Assembly: GCF_014775655.1 (NCBI RefSeq)
Contig: NZ_CP061274.1
Location: 1,488,001-1,552,000, forward strand
Direction of reading: 5' to 3'
Origin: Clavibacter zhangzhiyongii
GTDB taxonomy: Bacteria > Actinomycetota > Actinomycetes > Actinomycetales > Microbacteriaceae
DNA length: 64,000 nt
Under the pieces are notes generated by a model. That model searched no databases and had not been told where the DNA came from. It saw only the letters and a program-made list of their open reading frames with translations. Positions 55,073-58,291 of this stretch are shown piece by piece. The translations under genes were made by a program, and so were the position numbers. Position 1 is the stretch's first letter. Each line of letters opens with the position of its first letter.

Positions 55073-55495
55073 TCAGTCCTGCGACTCGTCCAGCTCGCGG
55101 GCGCCGACGGCGACGACCGCGTCGCGGAGCGCGTGGAAGTGGTGCACCTCGAGGCCGTTGCGGAGGAGGTACGGCTCCACGCCGCCGCGGCCCGCGAGCG
55201 AGTGCAGCGCCTGGATGACGGGCGCGGGATCCCCGGCCGCGGCGTGCTGTGCGGCGTCTCGGACGTCGAGGCCGCCCGCGACGAGCGCGAGCGCCGCGAC
55301 GAGCACGTCCTCCGCGGTCGCCGTGCGGGCGTCGTAGCGCGCGGCCGTGCCGGCCTCGACGCGCTCGGCGGCCTCGGCGACGCGCCCGGCGAGGAGGGCG
55401 CCGTCGGCCACGAGGATGCCGACGTAGACGGAGGCGGACGCGGTGGATCCGAGCGCGAGGCCGGGTGCCCGGGAGGCGGGGGCGGAGGAGGTCAT
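55073..55495 (-). CDS. Conserved hypothetical protein, helical
   Basis: A 140-residue protein. The N-terminus is an Ala/Ser-rich, then LALGSTASASVYVGILVADGALLAGRVAEAAERVEAG, a probable helix; the remainder is Ala-rich helix with DARTATAEDVLVAALALVAGG, a repeated Asp-Val-rich pattern and a His-rich EVHHFHAL. No signal peptide or membrane helix. A GAAGGG site supports the ATG at 55495. It is divergent from the cytochrome bd operon. I recognise no family. Confidence 0.6.
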   Translation of the reverse strand: MTSSAPASRAPGLALGSTASASVYVGILVADGALLAGRVAEAAERVEAGTAARYDARTATAEDVLVAALALVAGGLDVRDAAQHAAAGDPAPVIQALHSLAGRGGVEPYLLRNGLEVHHFHALRDAVVAVGARELDESQD

Positions 55496-55714
55496 GGCGG
55501 CCCTTCGGTCGGGTCGTGCGGTCCGGGTGGGGATGGGTCGTCGTCCGGGGCCCGGAGACGGGTGGGGCTCGCGCGGAGGCGGGCGCACCGGGTCGACGCC
55601 GATCCGGATGCGTGGTCCGAGCGTCGCCCGGGCGGGTGAACGACGGGTGGCCGCCGCACCGCCGGGCGGCGAACGCGACCCGACCGGGATCCCCGCGGAC
55701 GCTCGCGTCAGGCG

Positions 55715-55731
55715 TCTACAAGTCGTAGAAT
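55715..55731 (+). promoter_or_regulatory. Operator-like palindrome overlapping the cyd operon -10
   Basis: TCTACAAGTCGTAGA (55715-55729; arms TCTACAA/TCGTAGA, six of seven symmetric) overlaps TAGAAT (55726-55731), the likely -10. No good -35 lies 16-18 bases upstream, so an activator or a repressed weak promoter is possible. The TACA...GTA half-sites resemble BlaI/CopY-type operators, but I cannot assign a regulator. Confidence 0.55.
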
Positions 55732-55743
55732 GAAGGGGTCGCG

Positions 55744-55878
55744 ATGGAGCCTCAGACCCGCACGATCCACCCTCCACAGGAAGCGCATCCGGTCGCCATG
55801 ACACCGCATCCCGCCCCCGCCCCCGCCCCCGCCCCTGCCGACCGCCCGCGCTCCCGCCGTACCGGTCGCCCCGAGTGA
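55744..55878 (+). CDS. Proline-rich upstream ORF (44 codons) coupled to cydA
   Basis: An ORF of 44 codons in the cydA leader. It starts with ATG 12 bases after the -10, so it is almost leaderless, and its TGA overlaps the cydA GTG as GTGA (55875-55878). The peptide is Pro/His/Arg-rich: PP at 10-11, then alternating Pro-Ala PAPAPAPAPA at 23-32 encoded by a CCCGCC hexanucleotide repeat (55810-55839), then RSRR. Apart from the start codon nothing like a ribosome site precedes cydA itself, so translation of this ORF would deliver ribosomes to cydA. Coding is inferred from position and frame coupling; the peptide may matter only as a control element. Confidence 0.5.
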   Translation: MEPQTRTIHPPQEAHPVAMTPHPAPAPAPAPADRPRSRRTGRPE

Positions 55879-57287
55879 ACGACCTCCTCGACCCGCTCCT
55901 GCTCTCCCGCTGGCAGTTCGGCCTGACGACCGTCTACCACTTCCTCTTCGTGCCGCTCACGATCGGCATGGCCTTCGTCTGCGCGCTGTACCAGACGGCC
56001 TGGGTGCGCACCGGGAAGCAGCACTACCTGCGGCTCACCCGGTTCTTCGGGAGGATCTTCCTCATCAACTTCGCGATGGGCACCGTCACGGGCATCGTCC
56101 AGGAGTTCCAGTTCGGCATGAACTGGTCGGAGTACTCGCGTTTCGTGGGCGACGTCTTCGGTGCCCCGCTCGCGCTCGAGGGGCTCCTCGCGTTCTTCCT
56201 CGAGGCGTCCTTCATCGGCGTGTGGATCTTCGGCTGGGACAAGCTCCCGAAGGGGCTGCACCTCGCGTCGATCTGGGTGGTCTCGGTCGCGTCGATCCTG
56301 TCGGCTTACTTCATCCTCGCGGCCAACGCCTTCATGCAGAACCCCGTCGGCTTCCGCATCGATGAGGAGCGCGGGCGCGCCGAGCTCACCGACATATGGG
56401 CGCTGCTCACCAACAAGGTCGCCCTCGCGGCGTTCCCGCACACGATCTCCGCGAGCTTCATGTGCGCGGCCGCGGTCATCATCTCGGTCGCCGCCTGGCA
56501 CCTCTCGCGCAACCAGCACCTCGACACGATGATGCCGGCCATGCGCTTCGGCATGTGGTTCATGGTCGTCTCGGGCGCGCTCACCATCCTCTCGGGCGAC
56601 CAGCTCGGGCTCGCGATGGTGCAGACGCAGCCGATGAAGATGGCGGCCGCGGAGGCGCACTACGACACCTCCTCCGGCGCCGCCGCGTCGTTCTCGGTCT
56701 TCACGTGGGGTACGCCCGACGGGTCGAGCGAGCTGTTCTCCATCCGCATCCCGTACCTGCTCTCGTTCCTCTCGACGCACACGCTCGACGGCACGGTCCA
56801 GGGCATCAACGACCTGCAGGCGCAGTACGTCCAGAGCTACGGCCCCGGCGACTACACGCCGACCATCTGGGTCACCTACTGGGCGTTCCGCTGGATGATC
56901 GGCTTCGGCATGGCCGCCATCGGCGTGGCGGTCGCCGGCCTCTGGCTCACGCGCCGCGGCCGCGCCGTCCCGCGGCCGTGGATGTGGAAGGTCGCCATCT
57001 GGGCGGCCCCGCTGCCGCTGCTCGCGATGACCGTCGGCTGGATCTTCACGGAGATGGGCCGCCAGCCGTGGATCGTCTTCAGCCTGCTGCAGACCTCGTC
57101 GGCCGTCTCGCCGAACGTGACCGGCATCCAGGTGCTGCTCTCGCTCGTCGCGTTCACGGTCGTCTACGGCTCGCTCGCGGTGGTGGAGTTCCGCCTCATC
57201 CTGAAGGCGGCGCAGAGGGGGCCGGATCCGGAGACGGCGCCCGACCCCGAGACGGGCGAGGTCGTCCGGGAAGCGAGCGTCTACTGA
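55875..57287 (+). CDS. cydA: Cytochrome bd ubiquinol/menaquinol oxidase subunit I
   Basis: A 470-residue quinol oxidase subunit carrying hemes b558, b595 and d. Axial residues visible are His22 (TTVYHFLFVPL) and His189 (FPHTISASFMC), with the GRQPWIVF motif near residue 395; the acidic LEGLLAFFLEAS (Glu102) of helix 3 is present. The Q-loop is short, as in actinobacteria. Nine or so membrane helices. The GTG start is fixed by the conserved N-terminus, lacks its own ribosome site and overlaps the upstream ORF's stop. First structural gene of cydABDC; the stop shares one base with cydB. Confidence 0.95.
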   Translation: MNDLLDPLLLSRWQFGLTTVYHFLFVPLTIGMAFVCALYQTAWVRTGKQHYLRLTRFFGRIFLINFAMGTVTGIVQEFQFGMNWSEYSRFVGDVFGAPLALEGLLAFFLEASFIGVWIFGWDKLPKGLHLASIWVVSVASILSAYFILAANAFMQNPVGFRIDEERGRAELTDIWALLTNKVALAAFPHTISASFMCAAAVIISVAAWHLSRNQHLDTMMPAMRFGMWFMVVSGALTILSGDQLGLAMVQTQPMKMAAAEAHYDTSSGAAASFSVFTWGTPDGSSELFSIRIPYLLSFLSTHTLDGTVQGINDLQAQYVQSYGPGDYTPTIWVTYWAFRWMIGFGMAAIGVAVAGLWLTRRGRAVPRPWMWKVAIWAAPLPLLAMTVGWIFTEMGRQPWIVFSLLQTSSAVSPNVTGIQVLLSLVAFTVVYGSLAVVEFRLILKAAQRGPDPETAPDPETGEVVREASVY

Positions 57288-58291
57288 TGGACCTGCCCAC
57301 CCTCTGGTTCGGCGTCATCGCCTTCCTCTTCGTCGGCTACTTCGTGCTCGACGGCTTCGACTTCGGCGTGGGCATGAGCCTGCCGTTCCTCGCGAGGGAC
57401 GACACCGACCGACGCGTGCTCATCAACACCATCGGACCCGTGTGGGACCTCAACGAGACGTGGCTCATCGTCGCCGGCGCCGCCCTGTTCGCCGCGTTCC
57501 CCGAGTGGTACGCCACCATGTTCAGCGGCTTCTACCTGCTGCTGCTCGCGATCCTCATCACCCTCATCCTCCGCGGCGTCTCGTTCGAGTACCGGCACCA
57601 GGGGGCGTCCGACCGGTGGCGCCGGTCCTTCGACGTGATGATCGTGATCGGCTCGGTCGTGCCCTCCTTTCTCTGGGGCGTCGTGTTCGCGAACGTGGTG
57701 CGCGGCGTGCCCATGGACGCGAACCACGACTACACGGGTTCCACGCTCGACCTGCTGAACCCGTACGCGCTGCTCGGCGGCCTCACGACGCTGTCGCTGT
57801 TCCTCGTGAACGGGCTGCAGTTCGCGGCGCTCAAGACGGACGGCCCGATCCGCGCCCGCGCCCGCCTGCTCTCGATGCGCGTCGGGGCGGCGACCATCGT
57901 GATCGCGGCGGCCTTCCTCGTCTGGACCACGCTCGCGCACGGGTCGCCGCTGTCCGGTCTCGTCTCGGCGCTGGCGGCCGTCGCCCTCGTCGGGTCCTAC
58001 ATCGCGAACGTGCGGGGACGCGAGCGCTGGGCGTTCGGCCTGCTCGCGGCGACCATCGCGCTCGCGGTCGCCAGCCTCTTCACGGCGCTGCACCCGTTCG
58101 TGATGCCCGCGTCCAACATCCCCGCGAACGGGCTGACGCTCGAGAACGCGTCGTCGTCGCCGTACACGCTGACGATCATGACGTGGGCCGCGGGCTTCGC
58201 GCTGCCGCTGATCCTGGCCTACCAGGGCTGGACGTACTGGGTGTTCCGGAAGCGCATCACGCGCGCCGTCATCGCCCAGGCCGCCCACTGA
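57287..58291 (+). CDS. cydB: Cytochrome bd oxidase subunit II
   Basis: A 334-residue membrane subunit stabilising the d-heme site. The start MDLPTLWFGVIAFLFVGYFVLDGFDFGVGMSLPFL and the NTIGPVWDLNETWLIVAGAALFAAFPEWYATMFSGFYLLL motif are diagnostic of CydB. Eight membrane helices. It is coupled to cydA (TGATG) and is followed four bases later by cydD. Together with CydA it forms the high-affinity oxidase used under low oxygen. Confidence 0.95.
   Translation: MDLPTLWFGVIAFLFVGYFVLDGFDFGVGMSLPFLARDDTDRRVLINTIGPVWDLNETWLIVAGAALFAAFPEWYATMFSGFYLLLLAILITLILRGVSFEYRHQGASDRWRRSFDVMIVIGSVVPSFLWGVVFANVVRGVPMDANHDYTGSTLDLLNPYALLGGLTTLSLFLVNGLQFAALKTDGPIRARARLLSMRVGAATIVIAAAFLVWTTLAHGSPLSGLVSALAAVALVGSYIANVRGRERWAFGLLAATIALAVASLFTALHPFVMPASNIPANGLTLENASSSPYTLTIMTWAAGFALPLILAYQGWTYWVFRKRITRAVIAQAAH

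What the first reader, a model, noticed from the sequence alone, without database searches (positions are those of the whole stretch)
55715..55878. Unannotated proline-rich upstream ORF translationally coupled to cydA, behind a palindrome that overlaps the -10
Seen: a 44-codon ORF starts 12 bases after a TAGAAT -10, contains PP and a Pro-Ala decapeptide from a CCCGCC repeat, and ends by overlapping the cydA GTG as GTGA. cydA has no ribosome site of its own. A 15-base palindrome overlaps the -10. Known: alternating or consecutive prolines slow ribosomes without EF-P, and coupled uORFs control translation. Inference: production of cytochrome bd may depend on translating this leader, and the hexanucleotide repeat could change peptide length in steps of two residues without losing frame.
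Basis: partly seen in the sequence, partly recalled or inferred. Interest (0 to 1): 0.72.

Follow-up and report, generated by a model that had tools for sequence, protein, structure and literature searches.

The report
Short leader ORF coupled to cydA
In front of the gene for a respiratory oxygen-consuming enzyme lies a short open reading frame that probably has to be translated so that ribosomes can move on into the enzyme gene, and the DNA palindrome beside it looks like the docking site of a repressor known from antibiotic resistance.

Summary
At least 11 length changes on a tree are all multiples of 3, while the stretch just upstream changes by 1-2 nt. So a 26-codon ORF (55798-55878) is very probably translated and hands ribosomes to cydA, whose own ribosome site is weak. 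Curtobacterium has the same design, a 14-codon ORF ending on ATGA in 58 of 62 genomes; the other 4 look leaderless. Two further genera mix uORF and leaderless-looking forms. The peptides show no amino-acid-level conservation, so proline stalling is unlikely. The palindrome resembles boxes found before cydA in 16 of 16 named relatives with an adjacent BlaI-family gene. In the window's genus that gene lies elsewhere; in Curtobacterium its own promoter carries a similar box. Leader RNA folds no better than shuffles. Nothing was tested at the bench.

The parts
55714..55730 (.). Operator-like palindrome GTCTACAAGTCGTAGAA, of the type TTCTACANNNTGTAGAA; predicted site of a BlaI/MecI-family repressor, overlapping the -10
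   Evidence: box with at most 3 mismatches in 18 of 18 genomes of the genus; such boxes in 16 of 16 named loci with an adjacent BlaI gene; similar box over the -10 of the Curtobacterium blaI gene in 9 of 9 loci of that type
55726..55731 (+). -10 element TAGAAT
   Evidence: six variable bases, then GTCGCGATGG identical in 18 of 18, as expected if the RNA begins there
55738..55738 (+). Predicted transcription start (G of GTCGCG)
   Evidence: inference from conservation; the same -10 + 6 rule gives GTCCC in 57 of 57 Curtobacterium loci with a TANCGT -10, of 58 examined
55744..55746 (+).
   Evidence: frame reaches GTGA in 4 of 18
55738..55797 (+). 5' untranslated leader (60 nt here, 59-61 in the genus)
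   Evidence: 34 of the 45 columns before ATG2 invariant without gaps; folds no better than shuffles
55778..55783 (+). AGGAAG, weak Shine-Dalgarno-like site of the uORF, 14 nt before its ATG (8 nt in most Curtobacterium)
   Evidence: the spacing is long, so its function is inferred
55798..55878 (+). uORF, 26 codons, MTPHPAPAPAPAPADRPRSRRTGRPE
55875..55878 (+). GTGA: cydA start overlapping the uORF stop
   Evidence: 18 of 18
55875..57287 (+). cydA, cytochrome bd subunit I (470 aa)
   Evidence: PF01654, E 6.7e-164
57281..58291 (+). frame holding cydB, cytochrome bd subunit II
   Evidence: PF02322, E 4.3e-107

Best explanation
A transcript starting near 55738 is switched by a BlaI-family repressor that sits on the palindrome over the -10. 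On that transcript the cydA start has little ribosome-binding strength of its own. Ribosomes instead load at the short uORF beginning at 55798, translate it, stop at the TGA within GTGA and start again at the overlapping GTG of cydA (termination-reinitiation). The act of translation matters, not the peptide. Shown by comparison: frame, overlap, promoter spacing and box. Inferred: translation of the uORF, dependence of cydA on it, identity and binding of the repressor.
For: The uORF from 55798 ends on GTGA in 18 of 18 genomes, with 11 distinct distances all equal to 2 mod 3; no stop in 505 codons in frame, against 21 and 2 in 487 in the other frames. At least 11 length changes on a cydA tree, all multiples of 3, while the stretch between the two ATGs changes at least 8 times among 53, 54 and 55 nt. 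Weak cydA ribosome site in this genus and in Curtobacterium (medians -3.7 and -3.5, against -7.95). Second genus: Curtobacterium 14-codon uORF with GGAAG upstream, GTG start and ATGA overlap in 58 of 62 genomes, always 41 nt before cydA while the leader before it varies from 56 to 61 nt. In 4 of 62 the leader is gone and cydA's ATG lies 6 nt after the -10. Repressor: boxes with 16 of 16 adjacent BlaI genes; one displaced counterpart in the window's genus; a box over the -10 of the displaced Curtobacterium gene in 9 of 9 loci of that type. Worked precedent: M. tuberculosis ppe2 (PMC11260477, passages).
Against: No transcript, ribosome or reporter data. In this genus the AGGAAG lies 14 nt before the uORF ATG, which is long, and the site is weak (-2.9, or -4.3 with a wider window). 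Codon substitutions show no protein-like bias: variable columns by codon position 4,4,3 (first 8 codons) and 7,8,7 (last 9); in Curtobacterium 99 of 300 shuffles reach the observed amino-acid score. GC by codon position is 0.87/0.75/0.81, not clearly coding-like. No stop occurs in any antisense frame either, so frame keeping alone does not exclude an antisense ORF. In E. coli, removing the SD motif cut reinitiation in 4 of 5 gene pairs (PMC6728339 passages), whereas cydA's site here is weak. The window's box departs from consensus at 2 of 16 positions, and no box lies near the BlaI gene in 19 of 19 loci of the window's genus.
Confidence: 0.74

Rival explanations
1. The leader is untranslated; cydA starts on its own through its weak site or by 70S scanning, and the open frame is incidental.
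For: Weak signals at the uORF start in the window's genus; no codon-position bias.
Against: At least 11 length changes, all in threes, next to a stretch with at least 8 changes of 1-2 nt; the same overlap design in Curtobacterium with a fixed 41-nt uORF in 58 of 62 genomes.
Confidence: 0.15
2. The uORF is a sensing leader peptide: a specific sequence, such as the proline run, stalls the ribosome and regulates cydA.
For: Pro-containing peptide in all 18 members of the genus.
Against: Peptides differ between and within genera; the long Pro-Ala run is in the window's genome alone; no amino-acid-level conservation.
Confidence: 0.06
3. The first reader's 44-codon ORF from 55744 is the translated unit.
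For: The ATG itself is conserved in 18 of 18.
Against: Frame reaches GTGA in 4 of 18; predicted RNA start only 6 nt upstream.
Confidence: 0.03
4. Frame keeping reflects an antisense gene or an unknown constraint.
For: No antisense stops in the region; an antisense ORF 55752-56780 is open.
Against: That ORF is antisense to cydA in GC-rich DNA; it would not explain the overlap design in other genera.
Confidence: 0.02

Closest known systems
uPPE2-PPE2 of Mycobacterium tuberculosis (PMC11260477; passages read)
   Same: Out-of-frame short uORF, AUGA stop/start overlap, downstream gene without its own Shine-Dalgarno site; there shown to depend on uORF translation by termination-reinitiation
   Different: There a B12 riboswitch controls the uORF; here no Rfam match in the window stretch and no structure above shuffles, and control is predicted to lie in a BlaI operator
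Termination-reinitiation at overlapping gene pairs (Huber et al. 2019, PMC6728339; passages read)
   Same: ATGA-type overlap couples translation
   Different: There gene pairs, and removing an internal SD motif cut reinitiation in 4 of 5 E. coli pairs; here the upstream ORF is very short and cydA's site is weak
BlaI/MecI/CopY repressors and operators (PMC7253601 passages; M. tuberculosis BlaI and the ATP synthase operon, PMC12565901 passages)
   Same: PF03965 repressor, TACA/TGTA-type dyad; M. tuberculosis BlaI also controls a bioenergetic operon
   Different: The operator quoted there, TACANNTGTA, has a 2-base centre; the cydA boxes have a 3-base centre. cydA does not occur in the main text of PMC12565901. 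The papers listed for BlaI with cydAB (12 of 21) or with cytochrome bd and operator (3 of 3) have none of the terms in title or abstract; a review names SenX3-RegX3 for M. tuberculosis cydAB and BlaI for the atp operon (PMC5874750 passages)

Membership tests
Termination-reinitiation uORF with NUGA overlap | uORF stop overlaps downstream start (NUGA) | tested here: met
   18 of 18 in the genus; 58 of 62 in Curtobacterium
Termination-reinitiation uORF with NUGA overlap | Downstream gene lacks a strong Shine-Dalgarno site | tested here: met
   4 of 18 and 7 of 58 loci reach -5 kcal/mol, against 111 of 132 others
Termination-reinitiation uORF with NUGA overlap | uORF has its own initiation signals | tested here: inconclusive
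   GGAAG at a mostly 8-nt spacing in Curtobacterium; AGGAAG at 14 nt in the window
Termination-reinitiation uORF with NUGA overlap | uORF frame maintained by selection | tested here: met
Termination-reinitiation uORF with NUGA overlap | Downstream translation depends on uORF translation | not testable with these tools
   needs a reporter
BlaI/MecI-family operator | Dyad with TACA/TGTA half sites | tested here: inconclusive
   TACA on one side, CGTA on the other in the window; both half sites in several relatives, such as L005 and L006
BlaI/MecI-family operator | 2-base centre as in TACANNTGTA | tested here: not met
   3-base centre here and in relatives
BlaI/MecI-family operator | Cognate PF03965 repressor linked to the box | tested here: met
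   16 of 16 named loci with adjacent BlaI have a box, 10 of 64 without; in the window's genus and Curtobacterium the gene is in trans, with a box at its own promoter in Curtobacterium only
BlaI/MecI-family operator | Protein binds the site | not testable with these tools
   needs a binding assay
Arrest/attenuator leader peptide | Conserved peptide or codon run | tested here: not met
Known riboswitch or RNA leader | Match to an Rfam family | tested here: not met
   no match in window 55400-56000; only sub-threshold matches in 12 other loci

The most novel reading that the evidence does not exclude
In part of the family Microbacteriaceae cydA has lost ordinary ribosome binding and alternates between two states: leaderless, or reached only through a very short coupled uORF whose length is typical of the genus (8, 13, 14 or 20-43 codons) and whose peptide does not matter. 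The uORF would be a ribosome-loading device that rescues a once leaderless gene after its promoter moved upstream, with bd oxidase made under a BlaI repressor that has moved away from its target and uses a 3-base-centre operator.
Probability: 0.3. Interest if true: 0.62.

Novelty: new member of a known kind. Interest (0 to 1): 0.45.

Why it matters
Cytochrome bd lets bacteria respire at low oxygen and under respiratory inhibitors (established knowledge). If the reading is right, its amount in these actinobacteria is set by a very short ORF, and its promoter by a repressor family better known for beta-lactam resistance. The natural leaderless and uORF versions within one genus (Curtobacterium) make a ready-made comparison for how genes move between leaderless and coupled translation.

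Tried and rejected
RNA structure as the reason for leader conservation: fold energies no better than shuffles (z 0.70, 0.69, 0.17, 0.97, -0.10); the alignment fold (10 of the 18 leaders given) had 2 of 34 pairs with a change on both sides. Rfam: no match in the window stretch, five sub-threshold matches in 12 other loci. Proline stalling and peptide sensing. Sigma-70 consensus scan: no site; its two-hexamer rule may not fit this promoter. Box near the trans BlaI gene: none within 4 mismatches in 19 of 19 loci of the window's genus with the 1-base-centre form of the pattern; with the 3-base-centre form none before the 18 genes of the main type, and one 4-mismatch site before the odd second gene L211. 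In Curtobacterium I first took such matches for noise; one search shows them at one place, over the gene's -10, in 9 of 9 genes of that type, while the two other genes read (L229, L230) have none and a 4-mismatch one.

Papers: no paper held all terms for cydA with uORF, for translational coupling, leader peptide and cytochrome bd, or for Clavibacter, cytochrome bd and transcription start; of 157 papers holding two of cydA, upstream open reading frame and actinobacteria, the 15 listed held none with both of the first two. Most subscription journals are not in that library.

Full report
What is there. cydA is a genuine cytochrome bd subunit I gene (PF01654), followed by cydB (PF02322).

Which ATG. 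The frame from the next ATG, 55798, ends on the overlap in 18 of 18, with 20 to 43 codons. The distances (59, 62, 65, 71, 77, 92, 95, 98, 110, 125, 128 nt) are all 2 mod 3. A cydA tree needs at least 11 length changes for these, and at least 8 for the stretch between the two ATGs, which takes 53, 54 and 55 nt. That neighbouring stretch is the internal control: there the changes are of 1-2 nt, inside the uORF only in threes. If each change had one chance in three, 11 in a row would be about 6 in a million; the tree is weakly resolved (7 of 15 inner branches open), so this is a guide. The uORF frame has no stop in 505 codons, the other frames 21 and 2 in 487 each.

Promoter. In 18 of 18 genomes the six bases after TAGAAT vary and then GTCGCGATGG is identical, which suggests that the RNA starts at 55738. 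In Curtobacterium the same rule gives GTCCC in 57 of 57 loci with a TANCGT -10, of 58 examined.

Curtobacterium. The genus code g32 is Curtobacterium because one of its contigs (78115 bases) has the length of the named record behind L011, and the two leaders are the same. Of 66 genomes searched, 63 matched. I read the upstream region of the main cydA in 62 (L181-L210, L239-L269, L149): 58 have a 14-codon uORF starting GTG 41 nt before cydA, with GGAAG upstream, stopping on ATGA; 4 (L183, L185, L195, L197) have no leader, and the cydA ATG lies 6 nt after TACCGT. The distance from -10 to uORF varies from 56 to 61 nt while the uORF never changes length. G178 had only a distant match and was not examined. 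Four genomes carry a second cydA copy with a different upstream region (L270-L273). The leaders of the two genera share the stretch CCACAGGAAG, so the two may descend from one ancestor and are not counted as independent.

Two other genera. The sorting is by eye (GGAAG-like site before the uORF, or -10 just before cydA). In unnamed genus g5, 4 of 7 genomes have an 8-codon uORF on the overlap and 3 look leaderless; one of these three (L284) also has a TTG 23 nt before cydA but no site before it. In g35, of 12 genomes with cydA (16 searched), 2 have a 13-codon uORF, 3 look leaderless though their -10 fits less well, and 7 have a direct ribosome site. The states thus occur side by side within genera.

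Ribosome sites. Duplex energies with the 16S tail at cydA: median -3.7 in the window's genus (18), -3.5 in Curtobacterium with uORF (58), +0.2 in the leaderless four, -7.95 in 132 other loci, of which 111 reach -5. The 132 are all other named and first-fetched loci in which cydA was found; they include g5 and g35 and some genomes present twice. At the uORF start: -4.3 in Curtobacterium; -2.9 in the window's genus, or -4.3 with a wider window. The uORF site in the window's genus is therefore not strong, and this is the softest point of the mechanism.

Peptide. There is no sign that the peptide matters. Variable columns are spread evenly over codon positions in the window's genus (4,4,3 in the first 8 codons, 7,8,7 in the last 9). 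In Curtobacterium the amino-acid score of changed codons is reached by 99 of 300 column shuffles. The Pro-Ala run has 10 residues in the window, 6 in L083, 4 in L084, L085 and L096. This fits translation as such, not a sensing peptide.

Palindrome. Of 80 named relatives, 16 have a BlaI-family gene divergent from cydA, found by tblastn with the L005 protein; all 16 have a TTCTAC..GTAGAA box (at most 3 mismatches) before cydA, against 10 of 64 others, six of them Curtobacterium (Fisher 2e-10, not corrected for relatedness). The gene in L005 is PF03965 (E 1.3e-20), with a peptidase gene beside it (PF01435). The window's genome has one PF03965 gene, outside the window. Of the 18 genomes of the genus 17 have one match and one has two; that of G001 is incomplete. 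Curtobacterium has one to three matches in 66 of 66 genomes. Searched with the window genome's BlaI, 10 of 10 genomes with a cydA-adjacent BlaI gave only that gene, the Curtobacterium genome gave one gene elsewhere at 61% identity, and one genome each of g5 and g35 gave none; the 19 g5 and g35 loci have no box within 4 mismatches in the 250 bases before cydA. In Curtobacterium the displaced gene has its own box, TTCGAC(A/G)TCTCGTAGA(G/A), over a TAGAGT or TAGAAT -10 in 9 of 9 loci of that type, laid out as at the window's cydA. In the window's genus the blaI gene has no such box. So the palindrome is very probably the operator of this BlaI, displaced from cydA in the two genera. Published CopY/BlaI sites have a 2-base centre, these a 3-base centre.

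Known work. The nearest parallel is PPE2 of M. tuberculosis, where an out-of-frame uORF with an AUGA overlap is required for translation (PMC11260477, passages); general coupling at overlaps is in PMC6728339 (passages). M. tuberculosis BlaI represses an operon with ATP synthase genes (PMC12565901, passages). Searches for cydA with uORF and for a coupled leader of cytochrome bd gave no paper.

Verdict. A new example of a known kind of control, with good comparative evidence for translation and for the operator, and no bench evidence. The most interesting part is the exchange, within genera, between leaderless-looking cydA and uORF-coupled cydA.

Noticed in passing
L015, L145, L147, L152, L154, about 63-81 nt before the cydA start: Shared leader element of the form C(A/G)GGRATNACC followed by a complementary stretch, possibly a small hairpin with compensatory changes, in relatives whose cydA has a ribosome site of its own. 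L145, L147, L152 and L154 were scanned against Rfam: nothing reached a gathering score, and one sub-threshold match in L152 lies elsewhere.
   Followed up: partly
L231-L238 and L275, just before the BlaI-family gene: The displaced Curtobacterium blaI gene seems leaderless itself: its start lies a few bases after a TAGAGT/TAGAAT -10 that overlaps the box.
   Followed up: partly
L061, L068, L077, L080, L145, L151, L152, L154 upstream of cydA: A different palindrome, TGTGGTCAGACCACA-like, stands before cydA in Microbacterium and other genera; TTGTATACAA occurs in Herbiconiux-like loci (L002, L125, L126, L137). The cydA regulator seems to have been exchanged several times.
   Followed up: no
L003, L008, L140: Rathayibacter and relatives have the cydA GTG 7 nt after a TANNNT -10, so look leaderless.
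   Followed up: partly
L024, L270-L273: Second cydA copies in some Curtobacterium genomes, with unrelated upstream DNA and without the 14-codon uORF; L024 and L271 seem to be one record.
   Followed up: no
L227: The BlaI-family gene of G001 appears frameshifted.
   Followed up: no
L285, L286: cydA of G329 matches in two overlapping pieces, as if frameshifted.
   Followed up: no
L057: A contig labelled Planococcus carries a Microbacterium-like cydA; probably a mislabelled or contaminated assembly.
   Followed up: no
window 55073-55804, minus strand: Divergent ORF upstream of cydA without a Pfam family; its true start probably lies further in than the ORF start.
   Followed up: partly
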